Origin: Gemmatimonas sp. | GTDB lineage: Bacteria > Gemmatimonadota > Gemmatimonadetes > Gemmatimonadales > Gemmatimonadaceae | Direction: 5' to 3' | DNA length: 64,000 nucleotides | Assembly: GCF_027531815.1 (NCBI RefSeq) | Contig: NZ_JAPZSK010000007.1 | Coordinates: 62,001-126,000 of the forward strand | In this document: piece after piece, positions 38,427-50,824 of the stretch | How the letters are laid out: every line of letters starts with the position of its first letter | Position numbering within the stretch: the stretch's first letter is position 1 | Made by a program: the position numbers and the translations under genes | The notes under the pieces: generated by a model | Told to the model about the DNA's origin: nothing | Databases searched by the model: none | The model's input: the letters and a program-made list of their open reading frames with translations, nothing else

Positions 38427-39137
38427 ATGACCCAGAACCTGCTCCGACCGGTCGCGCTGGTGACCGGCGCCTCGCGAGGCATCGGCCGCGCCATTGCCGC
38501 GCGGCTTGCCCCGACGCATGACCTGGTACTCACCGCACGTGATGCGGCGCGCCTGGGCGACGTTGCCGCCACCTGCGAAGCGGTCGGAGCCCGGGTGCGC
38601 ACAATGGCGGTGGACGTCCGCGATGGGGCCGCCGCCGGCGCGGCCTTTGCCGGCCTCGAGATCGACGTGCTGGTGAACAATGCCGGGGTGGCCGTGCTCA
38701 CGCCGTTCCTCGACATGACAGCTGAGGAGTGGCACCGTCAGGTGGACGTGAACGTGAACGCGCTGTATCACGTGACGCGTGCCGTGCTCCCCGGCATGGT
38801 GCAGCGTGGCCGTGGGCACGTGTGCATCATTGGCAGCACGGCCGGGCGCAACACCTTCACTGGCGGCAGCTGCTACGCGGGCACGAAGCATTTCGTGATG
38901 GGCTTCGCCGAGTCGCTCATGCTGGAGGTGCGCGATGCCGGCGTGGGGGTGAGTGTGATCACGCCGGGCTCGGTGGCCACCGAGCTGTTCCCCGAAGGCA
39001 CCAACACCGCGTGGATGCTCGAGCCGGAGAACGTGGCCGACGCCGTGCTGTTTGCCGTCACCACCCCTCCGCATATGCTGGTGCATCGGCTCGAAGTGCG
39101 GCCGCTCTCGCCCAAGCGTCCCCGCGACAGCTTCTGA
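38427..39137 (+). CDS. Short-chain dehydrogenase/reductase
   Basis: A 236-residue NAD(P)-dependent oxidoreductase. Cofactor motif TGASRGIGRAIAARL (residues about 11-25), NNAGVAVLTPF, catalytic Ser in IIGSTAGRNTF and YAGTKHF with the Tyr-x3-Lys pair, then ITPGSVATELF. Closest in style to YdfG-type general SDR enzymes; the substrate cannot be told from sequence. It is the first gene of an 18-kb co-directional run and ends 10 bp before the GAF-domain gene. Confidence 0.92.
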   Translation: MTQNLLRPVALVTGASRGIGRAIAARLAPTHDLVLTARDAARLGDVAATCEAVGARVRTMAVDVRDGAAAGAAFAGLEIDVLVNNAGVAVLTPFLDMTAEEWHRQVDVNVNALYHVTRAVLPGMVQRGRGHVCIIGSTAGRNTFTGGSCYAGTKHFVMGFAESLMLEVRDAGVGVSVITPGSVATELFPEGTNTAWMLEPENVADAVLFAVTTPPHMLVHRLEVRPLSPKRPRDSF

Positions 39138-39147
39138 GCACCGCCTG

Positions 39148-40422
39148 ATGAGTGAAGCGCGCGAACTGCTGGCGGTACGGGAAATCGCCCACGCCTTTCT
39201 GCTGGCCGACCATCCGGGCGATGTGCAGCAGTTCGCCCTCAATCGCGTCACCCCGCTGCTGGGGGCGACCTTTTCGCTGGTGATGCAGCTGAGCGACGAC
39301 GGCGAACTGCTGCGTCCCGTGGCGCAGCACGAGTGGCCCGCCACCTACCGGCAGTGGATCGGCGCCCTGCGGGTGCGGGTGGGCGATGGGCCAAGTGGCG
39401 TGGCCGTAGCCGAGCGACGGCTCGTGGAAGTGGTGGATCTGTTGGCCGACCCCGAGCTGGCGCCGTGGCACGATGTGGCGCGCGAGCTGGGCTTTCGCAG
39501 CATCCTGGCGGCCCCGCTGGAAACGGCAGACGGTCCCCTTGGCGTGGTGGCCTTCTACTTCGCCGATGCCACGCATGTCACGGATGAGCAACGTGCGCTG
39601 GTGCGATTGGTGGCCGATCAGCTGGCTGCCGCGACCGACAAGTCACGTCGTGCCGATGCACTGCGGCGGGCCAACGCCGCGCTGGCTGAAGCCAATGCGG
39701 AACTCGAGCAGCGGGCGCGGCAGTGGCAGGACGCGCAGCGCGCCCGTGATGCTTCCGAATCGGTGGTGGTCGATGCGCTGCTTGCCCTGACCGATGCGGC
39801 CGACACCCGACCGCCCGCGGTGCGGTTGCAGGCGGTGCATCAGCTGGCGCGCGCGGCGCGCGAATATGGCGAGGCAACGCAACCGGCCTTCGCCCTGACT
39901 CTTGCCGATGTGGACCCACGCGACGCCCTGCAGCGGGCTGCCGCCACGTGGCGCGCGCGCGCGCCCATGGTGCCCGTGCAGGTGGACGAGCCAACCGTGC
40001 TGCTGCCCACCATGCGCACCGATCCGGCCTTACTGGAACGCACGCTCGAGCTGGCCATTGGACTGGGCGTGGCGGGGGCGTCGCTCGATGGCGGTCAGGT
40101 GCGGACAGGGATCCGCCTGGGGCGCGGCTTTCTGGCAGTGCAGGTGGCCTGGGACGGACGTCCCGTCTTCGAGGAGCCGGCGGCGGCACCTGACCCGTCG
40201 CGGGCTGCTATACTTCGCATTCGCGCCGACGCGCTGCGGTGGGAGGCGAACGACGTGTATGCCGATGCGCGCCGCTGGATCACGGCGGTGGACCTGCCGC
40301 TCGCCCGGGCGCTGGCCAGTCGGCAGGGTGGCGAGCTGCGGGTGGAGCTGGTCGATACGGCGGAGGCGACGCGCGACCTGCTGCTGGTCTTCCCCGTGGT
40401 CGCTGAGCCACACCAGCCGTAG
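39148..40422 (+). CDS. GAF-domain protein with degenerate histidine-kinase C-terminus
   Basis: A 424-residue soluble protein. Residues about 5-160 form a GAF sensor domain (VGDGPSGVAVAERR, ILAAPLETADGPLGVVAFY), followed by an Ala/Glu/Arg coiled coil (LRRANAALAEANAELEQRA). The C-terminal 160 residues follow the outline of a histidine-kinase ATPase domain (DPALLERTLELAIG in place of the N-box; LPLARALASRQGGELRV in place of the G2 box and last strand). The phosphoacceptor His, the N-box Asn and the DxGxG motif are missing, so it should not be an active kinase. The ATG at 39148 follows the SDR gene. It may act as a sensor scaffold for the following operon, a guess based on position. Confidence 0.72.
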   Translation: MSEARELLAVREIAHAFLLADHPGDVQQFALNRVTPLLGATFSLVMQLSDDGELLRPVAQHEWPATYRQWIGALRVRVGDGPSGVAVAERRLVEVVDLLADPELAPWHDVARELGFRSILAAPLETADGPLGVVAFYFADATHVTDEQRALVRLVADQLAAATDKSRRADALRRANAALAEANAELEQRARQWQDAQRARDASESVVVDALLALTDAADTRPPAVRLQAVHQLARAAREYGEATQPAFALTLADVDPRDALQRAAATWRARAPMVPVQVDEPTVLLPTMRTDPALLERTLELAIGLGVAGASLDGGQVRTGIRLGRGFLAVQVAWDGRPVFEEPAAAPDPSRAAILRIRADALRWEANDVYADARRWITAVDLPLARALASRQGGELRVELVDTAEATRDLLLVFPVVAEPHQP

Positions 40423-40489: not shown

Positions 40490-40837
40490 ATGTCGTCACA
40501 ACATCAGCAGTCCAACCGCAAGGTGATGGACACGCTCACCTCGCTTTCGGTGGCCGAGGCGCTGGCCGCTGCCGCACAGTTCTTTGGCCGTCACGGCGGT
40601 GTCTATACGGCGTTCGTGGAGAAGCAGGGGCCCAACCACGTGACGTTGCGGGGGCAGGGCGGCGAGGAGATCGCCATTGGCGCACGCGACACCGCTGCCG
40701 GGACGGCCGTGACCGGGTCGAGCTATCTGTTCGACCAGCAGGTGGCCCGATTCCTCGAGTCGTTGCCGCCGGCACCGCCGGTGGCGGACGCTCCCGCGGC
40801 ATCGGGAGAGGAAACGGTCTCCCCCCCTACTGCGTAA
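40490..40837 (+). CDS. Uncharacterised 115-residue protein at the head of the MoxR operon
   Basis: No known family recognised. Residues about 12-90 look folded, alternating helix and strand: SVAEALAAAAQFFGRHGGVYTAF, then VTLRGQGGEEIAIGARD, then GSSYLFDQQVARFLESLPP. The last 25 residues are Pro/Ala rich and probably disordered. No signal peptide or membrane helix. It is 67 bp after the GAF gene and 7 bp before the ubiquitin-like gene, so it is likely part of the MoxR operon, perhaps as an adaptor. Confidence 0.7.
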   Translation: MSSQHQQSNRKVMDTLTSLSVAEALAAAAQFFGRHGGVYTAFVEKQGPNHVTLRGQGGEEIAIGARDTAAGTAVTGSSYLFDQQVARFLESLPPAPPVADAPAASGEETVSPPTA

Positions 40838-40844
40838 GAGGCGC

Positions 40845-41192
40845 ATGAGTCAGAGCGATCAGACGACCGGCCAGTTCGCGAACCAGCTCCGCGTGCGTCC
40901 CGAGGTGTTGCATATCGCGCCGGCGGGCGCCGCTGCCACCTGGGTGGTGCGGGTGCAGGCGGCGGAGGCGTGGGATGCGGTACGGGTGGCGTGCGCCCCG
41001 CAGAACACGGTGCGGGAGCTCAAGCGGGCGGCCATGGCCAACCTGCTTCCGGATATCGCGGAAATCGATGCCTACCTCGTGAAGCTGCATGGCGCCGAGG
41101 TGACGCAGGAGTCGGTGACGCTGCAGGCGGCGGGCGCGAAGGATGCGTCCACGTTCTTCCTCACCTCGCGACGCCGCCGGCCACTCAAGTGA
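40845..41192 (+). CDS. Predicted ubiquitin-like (beta-grasp) small protein
   Basis: A 115-residue cytosolic protein. After a 25-residue lead, the order of elements matches ubiquitin: strand TWVVRVQAA, strand DAVRVACAP, helix TVRELKRAAMANL, strand AYLVKLHGAEV, then TL and a final strand STFFLTSRRRR. The pattern G-x2-V-x4-VTLQ...STFFL parallels G-x2-L-x4-TL...STLHL of ubiquitin. It ends in RRRRPLK without a Gly-Gly, so conjugation is not expected, as with YukD/EsaB-type proteins. It ends 2 bp before the MoxR ATPase gene. The fold call comes from reading the pattern, not from a profile search. Confidence 0.6.
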   Translation: MSQSDQTTGQFANQLRVRPEVLHIAPAGAAATWVVRVQAAEAWDAVRVACAPQNTVRELKRAAMANLLPDIAEIDAYLVKLHGAEVTQESVTLQAAGAKDASTFFLTSRRRRPLK

Positions 41193-41194
41193 CC

Positions 41195-42214
41195 ATGATC
41201 GTGGAGCCGGGCGCCGGCGAGGCGCGCAGCGTGTCGTCGCTGATTGCCGCGGTGCAACGGCTGCGCGGCGAAATCGGCAAGCGCGTGGTGGGGCAACAGG
41301 CGGTCGTCGACGAGATTCTCATGGCGCTCGTGGCTGGCGGACACGCGCTGCTGGTGGGTGTGCCGGGGCTGGCCAAGACGCTCATGATCAAGTCGCTGGC
41401 CGATGCCATGCAGCTGGAGTTCCGCCGCATCCAGTTCACCCCGGATCTGGTGCCCAGCGACATCACGGGTACGGAGATCCTCGAGGAGAGTGGAGGTGGG
41501 CAGCGCGCGTTTCGTTTCGTGCGCGGGCCCGTGTTTGCGAACATCGTGCTGGCCGACGAGATCAATCGTGCGCCGCCACGTACCCAGGCGGCGTTGCTGG
41601 AGGCGATGCAGGAGCACAGTGTGACCGCGGCCGGGCAGACCATGCGCCTGCCGGAGCCCTTCTTCGTGCTCGCGACCCAGAACCCGATCGAGCAGGAAGG
41701 CACGTATCCGCTGCCGGAGGCGCAGCTCGATCGGTTCCTCTTCGACATTCGGGTGGGCTACCCCACCGAGGCCGACGAGGTGGCCATCCTGCGCACCACC
41801 ACGGGCGCTCGCGGCGCACCGATCGACGCGGTCTTCACCGCCGATGACGCGCTGGCGCTGCAACGGGCCGTACGGGCGCTGCCGTGCAGCGAGCTGTTGC
41901 TGCACTACGCCGCTCGGCTCGTGCGTGCATCGCGCCCGCAGGAGGGGAATGCGCCGGCGCTGGTGCGGCAGTACGTGCGCTGGGGAGCGGGGCCGCGTGC
42001 CGGTCAGGCGCTCATTCTGGGGGCCAAGGCCTGCGCGCTGCTGGGCGGACGTGCGGCGGTGTCGCCCGCGGACATTCAGCGCGTGGCGATGCCGGTGCTG
42101 CGGCATCGCCTGCTCCCCAACTTCGCAGCGGAAGCGGACGGCGTGGCGGCGGAGTCGTTGATCGACGCGTTGCTGGCGCACGTGCCGGTGCCGTCGAGCG
42201 CCACGGCCCCCTGA
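41195..42214 (+). CDS. MoxR-family AAA+ ATPase
   Basis: A 339-residue ATPase. Walker A VGVPGLAKT near residue 53, sensor and Walker B IVLADEINRAPPRTQAALLEAMQE, the PIEQEGTYPLPEAQLDRF motif with sensor 1 (ATQNP), and the C-terminal lid domain. MoxR proteins act as chaperones with vWA partners, often to assemble or load metal into enzymes or control envelope processes. The start ATG at 41195 is 2 bp past the ubiquitin-like gene stop and gives the usual length. DUF58 follows after 7 bp, the classical MoxR pairing. Confidence 0.95.
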   Translation: MIVEPGAGEARSVSSLIAAVQRLRGEIGKRVVGQQAVVDEILMALVAGGHALLVGVPGLAKTLMIKSLADAMQLEFRRIQFTPDLVPSDITGTEILEESGGGQRAFRFVRGPVFANIVLADEINRAPPRTQAALLEAMQEHSVTAAGQTMRLPEPFFVLATQNPIEQEGTYPLPEAQLDRFLFDIRVGYPTEADEVAILRTTTGARGAPIDAVFTADDALALQRAVRALPCSELLLHYAARLVRASRPQEGNAPALVRQYVRWGAGPRAGQALILGAKACALLGGRAAVSPADIQRVAMPVLRHRLLPNFAAEADGVAAESLIDALLAHVPVPSSATAP

Positions 42215-42221
42215 TCGGCTG

Positions 42222-43148
42222 ATGTCGGCATACGGCCCCCTGCTCGACGCGTTGCGCGGCGTGCGCTGGCCGGCGCGCCGTGCGGTGGGGAATGCGCCCC
42301 CCGGCGCGCACCGCTCGACGCAGAAGGGCACGGCCGGGGAGTTCACCGAGTATCGCCTGTATCGACAGGGCGACGATCCCCGGGCCCTCGACTGGCGATT
42401 GCTGGCGCGCAGCGATCGCGCGTTCGTGCGCCTCAGCGATGACCGGGTGCTGCTGTCCACATGGATCGTGGTGGACGCGAGCGCGAGCATGGCGTTTCCC
42501 GAGGAGGCCGCGGCGCACAGCAAGTTCGCGCAGGCGCGACTGGTGGCCGTGGCGTTGGCGGCCATTGCCCATGCCTCGAGCGATCCGGTGGGCTTGCTGG
42601 TGCTGCACGCGCAGGGCGTGCAGCGCGTGCCGCCGCGCACGCGCCGTGGCACGGTGCAGGAGCTTGCCCGCGTGCTGGATGGTGTGCGCCCGGGTGGCTC
42701 TGCGCCGCTGGCGCCGTCGCTGGCCCAGTTGCCGGTGCACGCCCGGGTGGTGCTGCTCACCGACTGTCTGGGCGACGCCGATGCGCTACTCCGGACGGTG
42801 GCGGCGCACACGGTGGCGGGGGCACAGGTGGAGTGCGTCCATATCGTGGCCGACGCCGAGCTGACGCCGCCATCGGCCACGTTTCTCGTGCACGACCCGG
42901 AACAGCCGCGTGATGAACGCGTACTGTCGGCGGCCGGCCGCGCCGCGTACCGTGAGCGCTTCGACGACTTCCGGCGCGACATGAGCACGCGCTGGCGTGC
43001 GGCAGGGGCGGGCTACACCGAGGTCCGGACCGGCGACGACGCGGCACGTGCCGCGCGTGCGGTGGTGATGGGCACGGCGCTGTCGGGTACGCGGCAACCA
43101 GCTGAGGGGCTCCCGACGCCCGCGCTGCCGGCATCGGCCAGGCGCTGA
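42222..43148 (+). CDS. DUF58 protein with von Willebrand A-like domain
   Basis: A 308-residue cytosolic protein, the standard partner of MoxR. The DUF58 signature GEFTEYRLYRQGDDPRALDWRLLARSDR is at about residues 39-66. The vWA part starts with VVDASASMAF, holding an intact DxSxS MIDAS metal site, and continues through VVLLTDCLGD. The C-terminal segment is Ala/Arg-rich. No transmembrane helices. One base separates its stop from the GTG of the next gene. Confidence 0.93.
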   Translation: MSAYGPLLDALRGVRWPARRAVGNAPPGAHRSTQKGTAGEFTEYRLYRQGDDPRALDWRLLARSDRAFVRLSDDRVLLSTWIVVDASASMAFPEEAAAHSKFAQARLVAVALAAIAHASSDPVGLLVLHAQGVQRVPPRTRRGTVQELARVLDGVRPGGSAPLAPSLAQLPVHARVVLLTDCLGDADALLRTVAAHTVAGAQVECVHIVADAELTPPSATFLVHDPEQPRDERVLSAAGRAAYRERFDDFRRDMSTRWRAAGAGYTEVRTGDDAARAARAVVMGTALSGTRQPAEGLPTPALPASARR

Positions 43149-43149
43149 C

Positions 43150-44535
43150 GTGCTCACGGTGGCGTTCCCGTGGATCCTTGGCGCGGCGGTGGCGGCGTCG
43201 TGTGGCATCACGCTGCTCCATTTTCTGTCGGTGCGCACCCCGCCGGCGCTGGCGCTCCCGACCGCACGATTCGTGACCACCGGCAACGCCCGCGCCGTGG
43301 CCCGACAGCCGCGACTCAACGATGTGCTGTTGCTGCTGCTGCGCGTGCTTGCGCTACTGTGTGCGGGGGCGGCGCTGTCGGGTGTGCGCTGGCAGCAGTC
43401 GTCGGCGTCGATGCTGCGCCTCGTGGTGGCCGACGACGCCCAGTGGGGCAATCGCCCCTGGCGTGATTCCGTGGCGCGCACTCTGGCCCGCGCCGACGCC
43501 ATGGTGGAGGTGCATGGCGCGCCTGGTGTGGCCGACGACCCCGGCGCGGCACTCGTGGCGGCCACGCAGCATGCCGCGCGGGCCGTGGCGCGCCACCCGG
43601 CGCTGACGGCCGTGGAACTCACGCTGCTGCTGCCATCTTCGGCAGCAACGACGCAGGGGTACACGGCGTGGCGCCCATATTGGCCCGGAGCCGTGCGCGT
43701 GCTGCTCAGCGCGCCTCCGCCACGAGCCGCGCGCGACACTACAACGGGTGCCTCGGCTTCAGCGCGCGCCGCCGTGCGGGTGCGAGGCGGGACGCGCGAT
43801 GATGCCGTGACGGCGGCCGTTGGGCGGTGGGCGCCGGTGGGAGCGCTTCAGGATGTCGTGATCGAGCGTGCGCCGACGGCAGATCGTGCGGTGAGTGCCG
43901 ACACCGCCGCCGCACCTGTCGGGCCCTTCGTGCACTGGCCCGCCGACGGTGTCCCGCGCGGGTGGGTCCCGCGTGCGCCCGCCGACAGTGTCGGCGCGCT
44001 GGCTGCGGCAGGTGGAGTGCTGGTGGGGCCCTTCGTGCGTCGAGCCACGCCGGGGCCACAGCTGGCGGCGCGCATCGATTCGGGAGGTCGCGCTGCCGTG
44101 CCGGTGCAGGTGGTGGCGTGGTGGAGTGACGGCCTGCCGGCAGCGGTGGAAGAGCGCGGCGAGGCAAGGCCGGTGGCGGGATGCCTTCGCACCGTGGCGG
44201 TGTCGGTGCCGCGTGGCAGTGATCTGCTCCTGTCGCCCGGCGCGCGCCCGTTGATGAACGCCCTGGTCGCGCCCTGCGGTGGTGTTCGAGTGGCTTCGGC
44301 ATTGGCGATCGCGCCAGACATGGTGCGCCCGATTGCGGTGCCGTCGGACTCCGCAGTCGCTGCGGTATCTGCAGGAAACGACGAGCGGCTGGCGCCCGCC
44401 GCCGCCTTTCGGAACGCGCAATCGCGGTGGCAGCGGGGGAGCGATCCGTGGTGGTTGGCCCCGGCATTGCTGGCGTTGGCGCTCCTGGCACTGGCAGCGG
44501 AGTGGCTGTTGCGCGACCGGGAGGCGGTGTCGTGA
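43150..44535 (+). CDS. BatA-like membrane protein (aerotolerance-regulator N-terminal domain)
   Basis: A 461-residue inner-membrane protein starting at GTG 43150. The N-terminus carries the BatA N-terminal pattern: a first helix (FPWILGAAVAASCGITLLHFL) with the RTPPALALPTARF motif, then LNDVLLLLLRVLALLCAGAAL as a second helix. A domain with vWA-like order follows, but the expected DxSxS site reads VADDAQWG, so metal binding seems lost. A last helix WWLAPALLALALLALAAEW is close to the C-terminus. The gene overlaps the next by GTGA. Confidence 0.82.
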   Translation: MLTVAFPWILGAAVAASCGITLLHFLSVRTPPALALPTARFVTTGNARAVARQPRLNDVLLLLLRVLALLCAGAALSGVRWQQSSASMLRLVVADDAQWGNRPWRDSVARTLARADAMVEVHGAPGVADDPGAALVAATQHAARAVARHPALTAVELTLLLPSSAATTQGYTAWRPYWPGAVRVLLSAPPPRAARDTTTGASASARAAVRVRGGTRDDAVTAAVGRWAPVGALQDVVIERAPTADRAVSADTAAAPVGPFVHWPADGVPRGWVPRAPADSVGALAAAGGVLVGPFVRRATPGPQLAARIDSGGRAAVPVQVVAWWSDGLPAAVEERGEARPVAGCLRTVAVSVPRGSDLLLSPGARPLMNALVAPCGGVRVASALAIAPDMVRPIAVPSDSAVAAVSAGNDERLAPAAAFRNAQSRWQRGSDPWWLAPALLALALLALAAEWLLRDREAVS

Positions 44536-46700
44536 GCACGGCGCTCGGTCCGGTTTCGGAGCCCGCTGCTGCCACGCTGATTGGGCGCATCAGGGCGGTG
44601 CAGACGGCCTTGCGCACCGTGCAGGTGGGGCGACAACTGCTGTTGGCGGGTGCTGCCGCCTGCGCTGTGCTGTTGATGGCGCGCGTGCTGATGGCCGAGC
44701 TGGCTGGGCGCGGCGATGGTGGCACGGCCGCGGCCTGGTGGTGGACGGCGGCCGCGGCGCTGGTGGCGGCGGTGGCCACTTGGTGGCGTACGCGCGCGCC
44801 GGTGCCTGATCTCGCCCGTACTGCGCTCTGGGTGGAGGAGCAGGGCGCGGCCTCACGCGGTCAGGCGCCGGACTTTGCGTTGACGACGGCGGTGGAGCTG
44901 CTCGAGGCGCGCGCAGAGCTCCCGCTCTCGCTGGCCGCCGCCGCCGCGCGCGCTCTCGACACCGCGCCAACGGTGCCCGGGCTGGCCGCCGCGCGCCGGC
45001 GCGCGTGGCTTGCCCCCGCGGCCTTCGGGGTCGGGGGGGCGCTGCTGCTGCTGCTGGGTCGCGAACGCCCCACAATCGCAGATCGTACCGCGGTCCCGGG
45101 TACCGCCGGCTCGGCGGCCGCGCCCGCGAGCGCCGCGCCAATGCCGTTGGGGACGTGGCGAGTGCGTGTGCGTCCGCCTGCGTACGCCGCGCTGGCGGTG
45201 CAGCCCTACGACGATCCCGCCACGGTGTCGGCGCTCGCCGGCAGCGTGGTGGAGGTGCAGGGCAGCGGCGATGCCCCAATCGTGCACCGCGCCGTCGTTC
45301 CGGTTGCCGGGGATGACAGCGCCGGGCGCCGCGGTGGCCCCATGGCGGTGGTGGTGAGTGAGGGCGAATGGCGCACCTCGATCGTGGCCAACGGCGGAGC
45401 GCAGAGTCTGCGGATCGAACGTGGTGGACGCGCCCGACTGCTCATTGTCGAAGGGCGCGCCGATTCCGTTCCGCGCGTGTCGCTCGAATTGCCGGCGCGC
45501 GACAGCGTCTTTCGTGAGGCGCGTGGCCTGTTGGCGCTCGCCGCGACGACGCATGACGACATCGGCCTCGCCCGCGCGCACTTCGAGCTGCTGGTGACAT
45601 CGGGAGAGGGCGAACGCTTCACCGTACGCACGGTCCTGCTGGCCGCACAACAGTGGAACGGGCGGGCCGGCGTGCGCGATGCGCGGCTGCGGACCACGCT
45701 CGATCTGCGGGCGCTGGCGCTGCAGCCCGGCGACGTGGTGCACCTGCGAGCGGTGGCGCGCGACGCCCACCCCAGTGCCGATCGCGAATACGGCAGCAGC
45801 GAAACGCGCGCGTTTCGTATTGCGCGCATCGCCGAGTACGACTCGGTGGCGGTGGAGCCGGCGCCGCCACCGGAAGTGGACAAGTCTCTGCTGAGTCAGC
45901 GCATGCTGCTGCTGCTCACGGAGAAACTCGACAAGGCGCAGCGGCGTCTTGCGCGCCCGGCGGTGTTGCGTGAATCGCAGAAGCTGGCGCGTGATCAGGC
46001 CCGCCTGCGCCTCGCGGTCGGGGACGTGGTGTTCCAGCGGCTGAGCGGAGAGTCCGCCGCGGAACATGCGCATTCGGCCGGCGATGGTCACGATCACGGT
46101 GTGGATCTGCAAGGGGGGAAGCTGTCGGTCAGCACGTCGAGCACGACGGGCATGCTCGAGGAAGGCAATGATTCACCGGTGATCGCCATCAATCAGCCGC
46201 TGCTGGAGGCGTACAACGCCATGTGGGATGCAGGGCGCTCGCTCGAGCAGGGAGATCCGCACGGTGCCATTCCGCCCATGAAGCGCGCGCTCGAGGCGAT
46301 CGAGCGCTCGCGCGCGGCATCGCGGCTGTACCTGCGCGGCAAACCGCCGCAAGTGATCGTGGACTTGGCCAAGGTACGACTGACGGGCAAGGACACCGGG
46401 CACGTCACACAGCGGAGTCGTCGGGCACCGCTGTCGGTGCGTGATGCCGAGCGCGATGCGCGTCTCGTTCGCGCGGCCTCGCTCGTCGCTGTTGACGGCA
46501 GTGCCGCGCGCGACACGGTGGCGTTGCTGCGCGTGGACGCGCTGGCAGACGCCCCCGCCTTTGCGGCGGCGCTCGGGGCCGTGCTCGACGTGCTCGAACG
46601 TGGCGGGGACGCGACGGCGGTGGTCGTGCAGGCACGCCGTGTCTTGGGCAACGTATCGCGCACCCGCGCGACCGTGTGGTCGGGGGGCGTGACACCGTGA
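44532..46700 (+). CDS. DUF4175-like large membrane-anchored protein
   Basis: A 722-residue protein starting at a GTG that overlaps the previous stop (GTGA). Two N-terminal helices (GRQLLLAGAAACAVLLMARVL and WWWTAAAALVAAVATWW) and a third near residue 190 (FGVGGALLLLLG) are followed by a long periplasmic part with beta-rich domains and a helical segment (LSQRMLLLLTEKLDKAQRRL). A His/Asp-rich stretch HAHSAGDGHDHG could bind metal. It resembles the DUF4175-type partners found next to MoxR/DUF58/BatA genes. Function unknown. Confidence 0.72.
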   Translation: MSTALGPVSEPAAATLIGRIRAVQTALRTVQVGRQLLLAGAAACAVLLMARVLMAELAGRGDGGTAAAWWWTAAAALVAAVATWWRTRAPVPDLARTALWVEEQGAASRGQAPDFALTTAVELLEARAELPLSLAAAAARALDTAPTVPGLAAARRRAWLAPAAFGVGGALLLLLGRERPTIADRTAVPGTAGSAAAPASAAPMPLGTWRVRVRPPAYAALAVQPYDDPATVSALAGSVVEVQGSGDAPIVHRAVVPVAGDDSAGRRGGPMAVVVSEGEWRTSIVANGGAQSLRIERGGRARLLIVEGRADSVPRVSLELPARDSVFREARGLLALAATTHDDIGLARAHFELLVTSGEGERFTVRTVLLAAQQWNGRAGVRDARLRTTLDLRALALQPGDVVHLRAVARDAHPSADREYGSSETRAFRIARIAEYDSVAVEPAPPPEVDKSLLSQRMLLLLTEKLDKAQRRLARPAVLRESQKLARDQARLRLAVGDVVFQRLSGESAAEHAHSAGDGHDHGVDLQGGKLSVSTSSTTGMLEEGNDSPVIAINQPLLEAYNAMWDAGRSLEQGDPHGAIPPMKRALEAIERSRAASRLYLRGKPPQVIVDLAKVRLTGKDTGHVTQRSRRAPLSVRDAERDARLVRAASLVAVDGSAARDTVALLRVDALADAPAFAAALGAVLDVLERGGDATAVVVQARRVLGNVSRTRATVWSGGVTP

Positions 46701-47335
46701 GCGTGGCGGAAATGGGGACCGCTGGCGCGCCGTTCGTGTTCGCCACGGCGCAGTACGAGTCGGGTGACTGGGACTCCGCCCCGCTCGTACCCGCCAACAT
46801 CATCGATTCGGTGGCCCGCTACACCGCGTTGGCCGTGCGTCCGCAGGGGGTGATTGTCCCGCTGTCGAGCGAGGCGGTCTTCCAGTACCCGCTGCTGTAT
46901 CTCACGGGACATCTGCCCGTGCGGTTCACCAGCCGGGAGCGGGAAGTGCTGGGCAAGTATCTCGATCGTGGCGGCCTGCTGTTCGTGGACGACCACAACC
47001 ACGACGTGGACGGCGCCTTCAACAAGACGGCGCGCGAGGAGATCCGGCGTGTGGCGGGGCCCCTGCTGCCGCTCCCCAACACCCATGAGCTGTATCGCTG
47101 CTTCTTCGTGTTCGAGAACGGGCCCCCCACCACATCGCACGAGATGAACGGCTGGGGAGACAACCTCGTGCACGAACAGCTCGACGCCGTGGTGAAGAAC
47201 GGACGCATTCGGGTGCTCTTCTCCAACAAGGACTACAGCTCGGAGTGGAGCTTTCACCCCGACAACAAGCGATTCCTGTCGGTGGACAACACGCGGTTCG
47301 GGGTGAACCTCGTGGTGTACGCGCTCACGCGATGA
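46697..47335 (+). CDS. DUF4159 domain protein
   Basis: A 212-residue protein. The whole sequence fits DUF4159: FVFATAQYESGDWDS, NIIDSVARYTALAVRP, LTGHLPVRFTSREREVLGKYLDRGGLLFVDDHNHD and NGWGDNLVHEQLDAV. The domain has a flavodoxin/GATase-like order; the DDHNHD stretch is acidic/His-rich. The start is set at GTG 46697 overlapping the previous stop (GTGA), like its neighbours; ATG at 46712 is the alternative. In family members a signal or TAT-type leader may be present, but none is seen here. Confidence 0.85.
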   Translation: MSVAEMGTAGAPFVFATAQYESGDWDSAPLVPANIIDSVARYTALAVRPQGVIVPLSSEAVFQYPLLYLTGHLPVRFTSREREVLGKYLDRGGLLFVDDHNHDVDGAFNKTAREEIRRVAGPLLPLPNTHELYRCFFVFENGPPTTSHEMNGWGDNLVHEQLDAVVKNGRIRVLFSNKDYSSEWSFHPDNKRFLSVDNTRFGVNLVVYALTR

Positions 47336-48795
47336 CCCGCCTTCTCGTGGAACGGCTGTGTCGCCTCGTAGGCGTGCTGGCGCTGCTGGTGGCCTTGGTC
47401 GTGCACTGGCGTGCCGCCCGTGCCGCCCGTGCCGGCGAGGCAGCCGTGCCAACGCGACGGGTCGTGCGACTTGCCGAGGGCGCAGGGCCGGATAGCACGG
47501 CGCGCGCGCTGGTTGCCGTACGCGAGGCGCTGCTGGCCGGCGCACCGGCGGCGGGGGCCGCTGACGGCGCAACAGATGCGCCCGACATGGCTACCCCGTT
47601 GCGCGACATCCTCCCGTCGCGCGATACCCTCGCCCTGCCGCTGGCGACGGTACCCGCCGCCGCCGTGCGCGCCGGACTTGGCAGTGTGCGGGCGAGCGGT
47701 GTGCCGCTGGTGTGGCTGGATGGCACCATGGCCCGCGGTGTGGCGGCGTCGGTGACCCGTGCGGCGGTACCTGGCGCGCCGCTCGATGTGCGGGTGGCGG
47801 TATCCGCGGGTACGTCACTGACGCTCGCCGACGCGGGTGGTGTGCTCGACTCGGTATCTACCGCGCAGCTCGTGACGACCTGGCGGCTGCGCAGCGCGGC
47901 CGCTCCGCTACGTGTTCGGCAGGGGCGCAGCGCCATGTCCCTGCCGGTGCCTGATTCGGGCGCGGCGCGCCGTCTGCTGGTGCTGGCCGAACCGGGGTGG
48001 GAGGGGAAGTTCGTGGTGGCGGCGCTCGAGGAAGCGGGTTGGGAGGTGGATGGGACGCTGCGCGTATCGCCCACAGGGCGCGTGACGATCGGGGAACCGG
48101 CACGGCTCGACACGGCGCGCTATGCGGCTGTGGTCGTGACCGACAGCATGCCCGTGGACGGCGCGGCGCTGTCGCAATTCGTGGCGCGTGGCGGCGGACT
48201 GCTGTTGGGCGGTGATGCGCTGCGCATTCCCGGGCTCGCCGCCCTGCGTCCGGCTCGGGCGACGGAGCTTCGGGGCGCCATTGCCGGTGGGTTGCTCACC
48301 GCCAGCCCACGCAGTGGCCTCGAGGCCTGGGAGCTTGCCATGACCGCTGACGCGCTCGTGCTGGAAACGGATCAGAGCGATCACGGGCATGATGAACCGG
48401 CGTTGGTGGCGCGTCGGGTGGGAGCTGGGCGGGTGGTCGCCATGCCGTACCGCGAAAGCTGGCGGTGGCGCATGCAGGGGAGTGACGACGGCATGGCGGC
48501 GCATCGGGCGTGGTGGCAGGGGGCCGTTGCCCTGGCGGTCCCGGCTGTGGGTAGCGCGATGCCCGTGGCGCCGGACCGGTACCCGGGTGATCGTGCGCCG
48601 TATGCGGACCTCGTGTCGCGCGTGGGCCGCGCCGCGCCGGCGCTTCGCGAGCCGCCGGGGGGCGACCCCGGAGGTGACGATGGGCGCGGTGTGGGCGACA
48701 TTCCTTTCGTGCTGCGTCCCTGGGTGCTGCTGCTCACGACGCTGCTGGCGCTGCTGGCGGAGTGGGGCTCGCGGCGACTGCGCGGTGCCCGATGA
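47332..48795 (+). CDS. Two-TM membrane protein with GATase-like middle, end of the MoxR operon
   Basis: A 487-residue protein. The first helix is CRLVGVLALLVALVVHW (residues about 10-26) and the second is at the C-terminus (RPWVLLLTTLLALLAEWGSRR). The long middle is periplasmic and Ala/Val/Arg-rich, with a segment resembling a glutamine-amidotransferase fold (AAVVVTDSMPVDGAALSQFVARGGGLLLGG) without a clear catalytic Cys. The ATG overlaps the DUF4159 stop (ATGA). Proteins of this layout close BatA/MoxR operons in several phyla; function unknown. A 67-bp gap follows. Confidence 0.72.
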   Translation: MTRLLVERLCRLVGVLALLVALVVHWRAARAARAGEAAVPTRRVVRLAEGAGPDSTARALVAVREALLAGAPAAGAADGATDAPDMATPLRDILPSRDTLALPLATVPAAAVRAGLGSVRASGVPLVWLDGTMARGVAASVTRAAVPGAPLDVRVAVSAGTSLTLADAGGVLDSVSTAQLVTTWRLRSAAAPLRVRQGRSAMSLPVPDSGAARRLLVLAEPGWEGKFVVAALEEAGWEVDGTLRVSPTGRVTIGEPARLDTARYAAVVVTDSMPVDGAALSQFVARGGGLLLGGDALRIPGLAALRPARATELRGAIAGGLLTASPRSGLEAWELAMTADALVLETDQSDHGHDEPALVARRVGAGRVVAMPYRESWRWRMQGSDDGMAAHRAWWQGAVALAVPAVGSAMPVAPDRYPGDRAPYADLVSRVGRAAPALREPPGGDPGGDDGRGVGDIPFVLRPWVLLLTTLLALLAEWGSRRLRGAR

Positions 48796-48862: not shown

Positions 48863-49795
48863 ATGAGCGAGCGCGTTGCGCTGATTTCTCATCCTGATTG
48901 CGGCCGGCACGATACCGGGTGGGAACACCCGGAGCATGTCGGTCGACTGGTCGCCATCCCGCGGGCGCTCAAGTACGACGTGGCGCTCTTCGAGGCGCTG
49001 CTGCACGTGGAAGGACGGCACGCGAGCGAGGATGAGCTCGCGCTGGCGCACGACCGCGACTACATCGCGCGCGTGCGCGACACGGTTGCCGCGGGCGGTG
49101 GGCGGCTCGATCCCGACACGGTGGTGAGTGAGGGCTCCTGGGATGCCATCACCGCGGGCGCGGGGTGTGTGCTGGACGGCGTGGACATGGCGTTCGATGG
49201 CCGTGCGCGGCGCAGCTTCTCGGCGGTTCGTCCGCCGGGACACCATGCGCTGCGGGATCGCGCCATGGGCTTCTGTCTGTTCGGCAATGTGGCCATTGCC
49301 GCGCACTATGCCATTGCCAGGCATGGATGCGAGCGGGTGCTGATCATCGATTGGGATGTGCACCACGGGAACGGCACGCAGGCGCTGGTGGAGCAGGAGC
49401 CGCGCATCCATTTCGTGAGCATGCATCAGTGGCCGTGGTACCCTGGCACGGGTGCGGCAGACGACCGTGGCCCACACGAGACCGTGTGGAACGTGCCCAT
49501 GCCCCCGTCGCTGCCGCCGGCGCGATACATCGAGGCGCTGCTGTCGGCGGTCGATGCGGCCGCCGAGGGATTCACGCCTGACCTCATCCTGCTCAGCGCG
49601 GGCTTCGACTGTCTCGAGGGTGACCCCCTGGGCGCCTTCACGCTTACGCTGGACGATGTGGACACACTCACGCGGGCGCTCGTGGAACGCGCCGAGCGGT
49701 GGTGTGGCGGGCGCCTGGTGAGCGCCCTGGAAGGAGGGTATGCGCCCGACGCCGTCGCCAAGGCGGTGCTGGTGCATCTGCGGGCACTGGCCTGA
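48863..49795 (+). CDS. Histone deacetylase-like amidohydrolase
   Basis: A 310-residue zinc amidohydrolase. Active-site elements are intact: RPPGHHA (His pair), DWDVHHGNGTQ (zinc Asp and His), STAG-equivalent LLSAGFDCLEGDP (zinc Asp) and ALEGGYAP (the segment that usually holds the catalytic Tyr, here GGY). Bacterial homologues deacetylate acetylpolyamines, acetoin-pathway enzymes or other acyl-lysines; the substrate here is not known. Ends 9 bp before corA. Confidence 0.92.
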   Translation: MSERVALISHPDCGRHDTGWEHPEHVGRLVAIPRALKYDVALFEALLHVEGRHASEDELALAHDRDYIARVRDTVAAGGGRLDPDTVVSEGSWDAITAGAGCVLDGVDMAFDGRARRSFSAVRPPGHHALRDRAMGFCLFGNVAIAAHYAIARHGCERVLIIDWDVHHGNGTQALVEQEPRIHFVSMHQWPWYPGTGAADDRGPHETVWNVPMPPSLPPARYIEALLSAVDAAAEGFTPDLILLSAGFDCLEGDPLGAFTLTLDDVDTLTRALVERAERWCGGRLVSALEGGYAPDAVAKAVLVHLRALA

Positions 49796-49804
49796 GCATC
49801 GCCC

Positions 49805-50824
49805 ATGACGCGTATCGTTCCCACGTCCGTGCCCGGTCAAGTCGATCCGGCCCCGCGTACCATCCACAGGTCGAAGCAGGGTGAGGTGGTGCTCGATTGC
49901 CATCCACGCGACGTCCCGGCGCTGCTGGCAGCGGGCGGGCCGCTGTGGATGGACATCGACAGCACCGTGCAGTCGCAGCATGCCCTGTTGGAGCAGCTGT
50001 TCCGGTTTCACCCGCTGGCCATCGAGGACACGCTCAACCCCGCGTCCCGAGTCAAGCTGGAGGAATACCCGGGGTTCGTGTACATCGTCATTCGCGCCGT
50101 GCAGCTGGCCGCGGATACCGACGATCCGTACGACCTCGAAACCAAGGACCTGCACTGCTTCCTGGGACCGTCGTATCTCGTCACGGTGCATGCGGGTGCC
50201 ATGGCCCCGGTGGATACGGTGTGGGAGATCATGCGCCGATCGCCCGAGCTGCTCGATCGTGGCGTGGAGCGTACACTGCACGCCGTGCTCGACACGGCCA
50301 TCGACGGCTACTTCCCCATCCTCGACCAGATCGACGACTTCATCGACGGGCTGGAGGAGCGTGTCTTCGCGCGCTTCGACCAGGAGGCGCTGCGCGACCT
50401 GTTCCAGGTGAAGCGGCTGGTGCTGTCGTTGCGGCGCTATCTCGGGCCGTCGCGCGAAGTGCTGAATGTGCTCACGAACCGCCCGAGCACGCTGGTGGCC
50501 CAGGAGGTGCAGATCTACTTCCGTGACACGTATGATCACGTGCTGCGCATCAACGATGCGCTGGACACCTATCGCGACCTTCTGAGCAGCACGATGGACG
50601 CGTATCTCACCCAAGTGTCCAACCGCCTGGGTGCCACCACCAAGGGATTGAGCGTGGTGGCGACCATGTCACTGCCCTTCGTGGTGGTGAGCGGCATGTG
50701 GGGAATGAACTTCAGCCGTATGCCCATGGCCCAGTGGCCGAACGGATTCTGGGTCCTGCTGCTGGTGCAACTGGGGCTTGGTCTGTTGCTCCTCATGCTG
50801 CTGCGTCGTCGTAACTTGTTGTAG
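49805..50824 (+). CDS. corA: CorA-family magnesium/cobalt transporter
   Basis: A 339-residue inner-membrane channel. The large N-terminal cytosolic domain (FHPLAIEDTLNPASRVKLEEYPGFVYIV) leads into a long helix and two C-terminal helices: LSVVATMSLPFVVVSGMWGMNF with the signature GMN, then FWVLLLVQLGLGLLLLMLL. It ends in a short basic tail. GMN is essential for Mg selectivity in this family. Confidence 0.93.
   Translation: MTRIVPTSVPGQVDPAPRTIHRSKQGEVVLDCHPRDVPALLAAGGPLWMDIDSTVQSQHALLEQLFRFHPLAIEDTLNPASRVKLEEYPGFVYIVIRAVQLAADTDDPYDLETKDLHCFLGPSYLVTVHAGAMAPVDTVWEIMRRSPELLDRGVERTLHAVLDTAIDGYFPILDQIDDFIDGLEERVFARFDQEALRDLFQVKRLVLSLRRYLGPSREVLNVLTNRPSTLVAQEVQIYFRDTYDHVLRINDALDTYRDLLSSTMDAYLTQVSNRLGATTKGLSVVATMSLPFVVVSGMWGMNFSRMPMAQWPNGFWVLLLVQLGLGLLLLMLLRRRNLL

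What the first reader, a model, noticed from the sequence alone, without database searches (positions are those of the whole stretch)
40845..41192. Ubiquitin-like protein wired to a MoxR AAA+ ATPase
The element order and the G-x2-V...VTLQ...STFFL pattern match the ubiquitin beta-grasp, ending without Gly-Gly. Its gene sits 2 bp before moxR. Bacterial ubiquitin-like proteins tied to AAA+/vWA systems are scarcely described; it could be a substrate tag, adaptor or fixed subunit, as YukD/EsaB is for type VII secretion.
Basis: inference. Interest (0 to 1): 0.7.

Follow-up and report, generated by a model that had tools for sequence, protein, structure and literature searches.

The report
Ubiquitin-fold protein paired with p2
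A small bacterial protein with the ubiquitin fold is real and nearly universal in its order of Gemmatimonadota, but its lasting partner is the small gene just upstream and not the MoxR machine beside it, which it meets only in part of one family.

Summary
In detail: window 40845-41192 encodes a 115-aa protein 2 bp upstream of moxR. AlphaFold2 gives a confident beta-grasp (pLDDT 88.3), and Foldseek/VIA match ubiquitin, ISG15 and bacterial BilA (VIA Z about 11). The wiring to MoxR does not hold as a general rule. moxR lies directly downstream in 37 of 56 fetched loci of the own family and in 0 of 42 loci of two sister families. At least six genomes carry both but unlinked. The constant partner is the unnamed small gene directly upstream ('p2', 40490-40837): it precedes the UBL in 97 of 98 loci, with a 4-base stop/start overlap in 85 of 97. 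The pair recurs as an isolated two-gene unit in other families of the class. p2 is predicted as beta-alpha-beta4-alpha, the fold class of START/SRPBCC and KA1 domains. The closest parallel is therefore proteobacterial RatA-RnfH, though no RnfH homology was found. The UBL lacks Gly-Gly, has lysine at ubiquitin's Ile44 position, and ends in a conserved basic tail, RR(R/Q)P(V/L)R. No linked E1/JAB in the order and no WXG100 were found. Most likely it is a non-conjugated, fixed subunit or adaptor working with p2. The function is untested and the MoxR link is at most a local recruitment.

The parts
40845..41192 (+). UBL: ubiquitin-fold protein, 115 aa, C-terminus ...RRRRPLK
   Evidence: AF2 model pLDDT 88.3; Foldseek/VIA to ubiquitin, ISG15, BilA; homologues in 182/298 phylum genomes
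40490..40837 (+). p2: unnamed 115-aa protein, beta-alpha-beta4-alpha fold, invariant motif RGxGxE; constant partner of the UBL
   Evidence: directly upstream in 97/98 loci; AF2 pLDDT 89.3; no Pfam/NCBIfam family; weak fold matches to SRPBCC and KA1
41169..41189 (+). C-terminal basic tail RRRRPLK of the UBL, conserved as (R/A/S)RR(R/Q)P(V/L/I)(R/K) in the order
   Evidence: 98 homologues
41195..42214 (+). moxR, AAA+ ATPase (AAA_3 E 3.6e-63); facultative neighbour
   Evidence: present downstream in 37/98 loci
42222..43148 (+). DUF58 protein of the MoxR cluster
   Evidence: Pfam E 1.5e-27
43150..44535 (+). BatA-like N-terminal two-anchor membrane protein of the MoxR cluster
   Evidence: Pfam BatA E 2.9e-5, just below cutoff
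44544..46700 (+). large protein of the MoxR cluster, no named family (start uncertain)
46676..47335 (+). DUF4159 protein of the MoxR cluster (start uncertain), used as cluster marker
   Evidence: Pfam E 8.4e-50
47332..48795 (+). last protein of the MoxR cluster, no named family (start uncertain)
39127..40422 (+). GAF-domain protein upstream of p2, conserved in much of family f1 (start uncertain)
   Evidence: Pfam GAF_2 E 3.8e-17
48863..49795 (+). histone-deacetylase-like protein; follows the UBL in relatives that lack the MoxR cluster
   Evidence: homologous cluster 5; distances; family name by reading, not by profile

Best explanation
The gene encodes a non-conjugated ubiquitin-fold protein that works as a fixed subunit or adaptor together with the small upstream protein p2. 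The pair is made in step by translational coupling and most likely forms a heterodimer. The conserved basic C-terminal tail would be the part that docks on a third partner, and p2, whose fold class binds ligands, lipids or protein clients, would supply the other contact. In part of family f1 the MoxR-DUF58 cluster moved in next to the pair, and it may or may not have become a client. Shown: the fold (predicted, confident), the gene pairing, the usual overlap, the tail, the absence of Gly-Gly. Inferred: the heterodimer, the docking role of the tail, the absence of conjugation. Unknown: the client.
For: p2 directly upstream in 97 of 98 loci, with stop/start overlap of exactly 4 bases in 85 of 97 and in 40 of 42 f2/f3 loci. 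Across 172 genomes of the order, UBL+p2+ 156, UBL only 1, p2 only 9, neither 6 (tallied). In families f7/f9 a diverged p2-UBL pair stands alone, in several loci between genes on the opposite strand. Fold confirmed. Ile44 of ubiquitin corresponds to a Lys that is at least 90% invariant (K80), and Gly75-Gly76 to Arg-Pro (alignment). No E1 or strong JAB gene lies near the pair in the order genomes examined.
Against: Cross-gene covariation between p2 and UBL does not exceed within-clade shuffles (3-5 of 60 reach the maximum, 5-15 of 60 the top-20 mean; effective N 59), so contact is not shown. p2 persists without the UBL in genus g10 (8 genomes) and in G090, and one genome (G103) has the UBL without p2, so neither strictly needs the other. 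In the window itself p2 and UBL are 7 bp apart, not overlapping. The start codons were chosen to lie closest to the p2 stop, which favours the overlap count.
Confidence: 0.55

Rival explanations
1. The UBL is an adaptor or substrate tag of the MoxR AAA+ ATPase, and the MoxR-DUF58 cluster is its real machine (with p2 as a helper), the link having been lost elsewhere.
For: UBL stop and moxR start 2 bp apart in the window; moxR adjacent in 37 of 56 fetched f1 loci; 33 of 49 genomes with the orthologous cluster keep it within 6.5 kb; in G047 and G094 the cluster lies on the other side, next to p2; genus g10 lacks both the orthologous cluster and the UBL in the five genomes tested for both.
Against: 0 of 42 f2/f3 loci have moxR downstream. 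UBL is kept in many genomes without the cluster (G024, G026, G129, G199, G202, G212, G241). Cluster and UBL are unlinked in at least G079, G244, G158, G080, G021, G037. The g1 genome G269 has no moxR downstream.
Confidence: 0.2
2. The UBL is a covalently conjugated modifier, activated by a ThiF/MoeB-type E1.
For: True ubiquitin fold close to BilA; every genome tested has a ThiF; in family f7 a ThiF-rhodanese gene lies about 3-7 kb upstream (with a JAB gene in G124), and f7/f9 UBLs end in a conserved single Gly.
Against: No Gly-Gly in any fetched homologue of the order, and tails extend past that position with RPVR. In the own genome the single strong ThiF is on another contig and the JAB hit is marginal. 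In f7 the E1 and UBL are separated by opposite-strand genes.
Confidence: 0.08
3. The UBL is a YukD/EsaB-type part of a type VII secretion system.
For: Single-member Pfam hits are best for YukD (35 of 78 members, best 3.5e-7); 4 members hit EccD weakly.
Against: No WXG100 gene in any of 10 genomes, own genome included (the control search did find Bacillus subtilis); no secretion genes recognised beside the pair.
Confidence: 0.03
4. p2 and UBL are a toxin-antitoxin pair, as was once proposed for RatA/PasT and RatB/PasI.
For: Two small, translationally coupled genes; parallel to pasTI/ratAB.
Against: p2 persists without the UBL in nine genomes. The pair is a near-core single-copy locus, not mobile. 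For RatA itself the toxicity was traced to a mis-annotated start (PMC11988751). No PADLOC hit for the UBL.
Confidence: 0.05

Closest known systems
RatA(PasT)-RnfH(RatB/PasI) operon of beta/gamma-proteobacteria
   Same: A START-fold gene directly followed by a stand-alone ubiquitin-like gene in a bicistron, with no E1 or transfer system (PMC1779556 for the gene neighbourhood, PMC11988751 for the bicistron; that yfjF/ratB is RnfH is from my own knowledge); p2 falls in the same broad fold class as START/SRPBCC.
   Different: No Ub-RnfH (PF03658) match in 10 genomes or among 78 UBLs; p2 is much shorter (about 90 aa in most relatives) and matches no Pfam family; no SmpB linkage noticed.
YukD/EsaB (type VII secretion)
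   Same: Small non-Gly-Gly ubiquitin-fold protein; weak profile similarity. YukD is reported not to be conjugated (PMC1779556).
   Different: No WXG100 genes and no secretion cluster; C-terminal basic tail; p2 partner.
BilA and other bacterial conjugated Ubls
   Same: Same fold, VIA Z 11.1 over 81 residues.
   Different: No linked E1/E2/DUB operon; no C-terminal Gly-Gly.
TmoB (toluene monooxygenase subunit)
   Same: Ubiquitin-fold protein acting as a fixed subunit (PMC1779556).
   Different: Bound to an oxygenase cluster; no such genes here.
MoxR-vWA ternary conflict systems with Ubl conjugation (PMC7159879)
   Same: MoxR near a Ubl in the window.
   Different: Those Ubls come with JAB, E1, E2 and RING genes and an EAD1 domain; none is present here, and the MoxR link is facultative.

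Membership tests
Ubiquitin-like beta-grasp fold | beta-beta-alpha-beta-(beta)-beta core superposing on ubiquitin | tested here: met
   AF2 pLDDT 88.3; VIA Z 11.6, 1.9 A over 79 residues to ISG15 C-domain
Conjugated Ubl / sulfur carrier (ubiquitin, ThiS, MoaD, BilA) | C-terminal Gly-Gly (or exposed after processing) | tested here: not met
   0 of 98 homologues have GG in the last 8 residues; tail RR(R/Q)P(V/L)R
Conjugated Ubl / sulfur carrier (ubiquitin, ThiS, MoaD, BilA) | linked E1 and JAB genes | tested here: not met
   own genome: ThiF on C14, marginal JAB on C10, UBL on C7; proximity without operon only in family f7
YukD/EsaB of type VII secretion | linked WXG100 and EssC-type ATPase genes | tested here: not met
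   WXG100 absent from 10 genomes; EssC not searched
YukD/EsaB of type VII secretion | YukD sequence profile above cutoff | tested here: inconclusive
   35 of 78 members match at E<=0.1, best 3.5e-7; the two rescanned members that match YukD score 14-17 bits against a cutoff of 27
RnfH | Ub-RnfH profile PF03658 | tested here: not met
   0 of 10 genomes, E. coli control positive
RatA-RnfH-like bicistron | upstream partner with START/SRPBCC fold | tested here: inconclusive
   p2 is beta-alpha-beta4-alpha; Foldseek best E 1.6e-3, SRPBCC and KA1 mixed, VIA Z 9.6 at best
   61 of 98 loci without moxR downstream, all 42 f2/f3 loci among them
Conjugated or adaptor Ubl | physical contact with p2, MoxR or substrates | not testable with these tools
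   covariation null; no complex prediction available

The most novel reading that the evidence does not exclude
The p2-UBL pair is a phylum-specific two-protein module in which a ubiquitin fold, stripped of Gly-Gly and of the Ile44 patch, acts through a conserved arginine-rich C-terminal tail; in one family it has been recruited to deliver clients to a MoxR-DUF58 AAA+ chaperone.
Probability: 0.2. Interest if true: 0.75.

Novelty: new variant of a known kind. Interest (0 to 1): 0.5.

Why it matters
Stand-alone bacterial ubiquitin-fold proteins that are not conjugated are few and poorly understood. This one is in about 91% of sampled genomes of its order (157 of 172), single copy, with a constant small partner and an unusually constant basic tail, and no family model describes either protein. 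Its repeated pairing with a beta-alpha-beta4-alpha partner recalls RatA-RnfH, described as enigmatic in 2006, and gives a second system in which to ask why a START-like domain and a ubiquitin fold travel together. It also corrects a tempting reading from one genome: the MoxR neighbour is facultative.

Tried and rejected
MoxR wiring as a general rule: rejected by comparison of 98 loci. Type VII secretion: no WXG100. Conjugation: no GG, no linked E1/JAB in the order. RnfH membership: no profile match. Defence system: no PADLOC match for the UBL. p2-UBL covariation: not above within-clade shuffles, underpowered. Family naming of p2: no Pfam or NCBIfam model, scattered sub-threshold hits only. Spread outside the phylum: the genome-contig scan, sensitive to close relatives only, found eight loci, seven titled Gemmatimonas/Gemmatimonadetes and one an unnamed bacterium; plasmids none; the viral scan could not be run with this alignment; so presence elsewhere is untested. 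Foldseek/VIA lists for p2 did not settle between SRPBCC and KA1.

Full report
OBSERVATION. The ORF at 40845-41192 is a 115-aa protein whose stop lies 2 bp before the moxR ATG at 41195. The window is part of a 4.3-Mb genome of the Gemmatimonas kind (named relatives). The family is real: a single-sequence search finds 153 of 298 phylum genomes, a profile 182 of 298, one copy each in nearly all.

FOLD. With an alignment of 78 homologues (A1) AlphaFold2 gives pLDDT 88.3 and pTM 0.78. The order of elements is the ubiquitin one. Foldseek matches ubiquitin, ISG15 and the bacterial Ubl BilA with probability 1.00 and target TM mostly 0.80-0.84, and VIA gives Z about 11 with 1.5-2.9 A over 73-84 residues for nearly all rows. 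Sequence profiles agree: members hit YukD, DUF2604 and ubiquitin in Pfam, and the profile hits tandem ubiquitin in the PDB, with single ubiquitins at about E 0.03-0.1. Family f1 has an extra N-terminal strand (model residues 16-23) that the shorter f2 proteins (mostly 83-94 aa) lack.

WHAT IS CONSERVED. Aligned to ubiquitin, Ile44 corresponds to a nearly invariant Lys (K80), Arg72 and Arg74 to arginines, and Gly75-Gly76 to Arg-Pro. The chain usually ends in (R/A/S)RR(R/Q)P(V/L/I)(R/K); no homologue has Gly-Gly in its last 8 residues. The usual hydrophobic patch and conjugation terminus of ubiquitin are therefore missing, while the tail itself is held constant.

THE PARTNER IS p2. The gene directly upstream, p2 (40490-40837), is present in 97 of 98 loci. 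In 85 of 97 loci the UBL start overlaps the p2 stop by 4 bases, though I chose the start nearest the p2 stop, which favours this count, and in the window the two are 7 bp apart. Over 172 genomes of the order the two co-occur: both 156, UBL only 1 (G103), p2 only 9 (genus g10 and G090), neither 6 (tallied). In families f7 and f9 of the class a diverged UBL is again preceded by a diverged p2, as an isolated pair, with a different conserved tail ending in a single Gly. p2 is predicted confidently (pLDDT 89.3) as beta-alpha-beta4-alpha; matches are mixed between SRPBCC/START-like proteins and KA1 domains and none is strong. From general knowledge of fold classification these belong to one broad fold class (TBP-like). 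No Pfam or NCBIfam family names it.

MoxR IS FACULTATIVE. moxR lies directly downstream of the UBL in 37 of 56 f1 loci and in none of 42 f2/f3 loci, most of which had about 4-6 kb of downstream sequence. Where it is missing, a deacetylase-like gene usually follows; in the window that gene is at 48863, beyond the MoxR cluster, as expected for an insertion (or for its loss elsewhere). Using DUF4159 as marker, 49 genomes have the orthologous cluster and 33 keep it within 6.5 kb of the UBL. Of 16 others, at least six are truly unlinked (G079 2.7 Mb apart, G244 1.5 Mb apart, G158, G080, G021, G037); some of the rest may be contig breaks. In G047 and G094 the cluster sits on the other side, beside p2. 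A local tie within f1 is possible; a family-wide one is not.

CONJUGATION AND SECRETION. Every genome tested has a ThiF gene, but in the order not near the pair; JAB hits in f1 are marginal. In family f7 a ThiF-rhodanese gene is about 3-7 kb away, with a JAB gene in G124, separated by opposite-strand genes. WXG100 is absent from ten genomes while the control search finds it in Bacillus subtilis.

COMPARISON. Published RnfH neighbourhoods pair a START-domain gene with a stand-alone Ubl and no transfer system (PMC1779556); ratA and ratB form a bicistron in E. coli, and RatA is now seen as a Coq10-like lipid chaperone rather than a toxin (PMC11988751). The arrangement here looks like that, but no Ub-RnfH homologue was found in ten genomes, so I claim likeness, not membership. 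MoxR systems with Ubls described in PMC7159879 carry full E1/E2/JAB sets, which are absent here.

MECHANISM. I commit to a non-conjugated UBL-p2 subunit/adaptor pair with the basic tail as docking element (0.55). The covariation test that might have supported contact was null, and no complex prediction was available.

Noticed in passing
L174, L172, L173 (genus g10): GAF-p2-deacetylase order kept in L174 but the UBL is missing from all eight g10 genomes sampled; in the five tested the orthologous MoxR cluster is missing too.
   Followed up: partly
L202, L204, L200 (family f7): ThiF/MoeB-rhodanese (and JAB in G124) genes lie about 3-7 kb upstream of the diverged p2-UBL pair, whose UBL ends in a conserved single glycine.
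   Followed up: partly
window 40490-40837: p2 carries an almost invariant RGQGGEE loop (R54, G55, G57, E59 invariant in 76 sequences) of unknown role.
   Followed up: no
L044 (G047) and G094:C62: The MoxR-DUF58-DUF4159 cluster sits upstream of p2 instead of downstream of the UBL.
   Followed up: partly
L098 (G244): This UBL has an N-terminal extension of about 60 residues, and its p2 a long Pro/Ala-rich C-terminus.
   Followed up: no
G000:C6:321212-321799: A second, distant DUF4159 gene (36% identity) in the own genome, perhaps part of a second MoxR-type cluster.
   Followed up: no
window 49805-50824: CorA-like magnesium transporter (by reading) following the deacetylase-like gene, the same order as in g10 (L174).
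   Followed up: no
L175, L176, L177, L179, L182 (family f6): p2 homologues occur without a detected UBL in family f6, so p2 is the more widespread half of the pair.
   Followed up: partly
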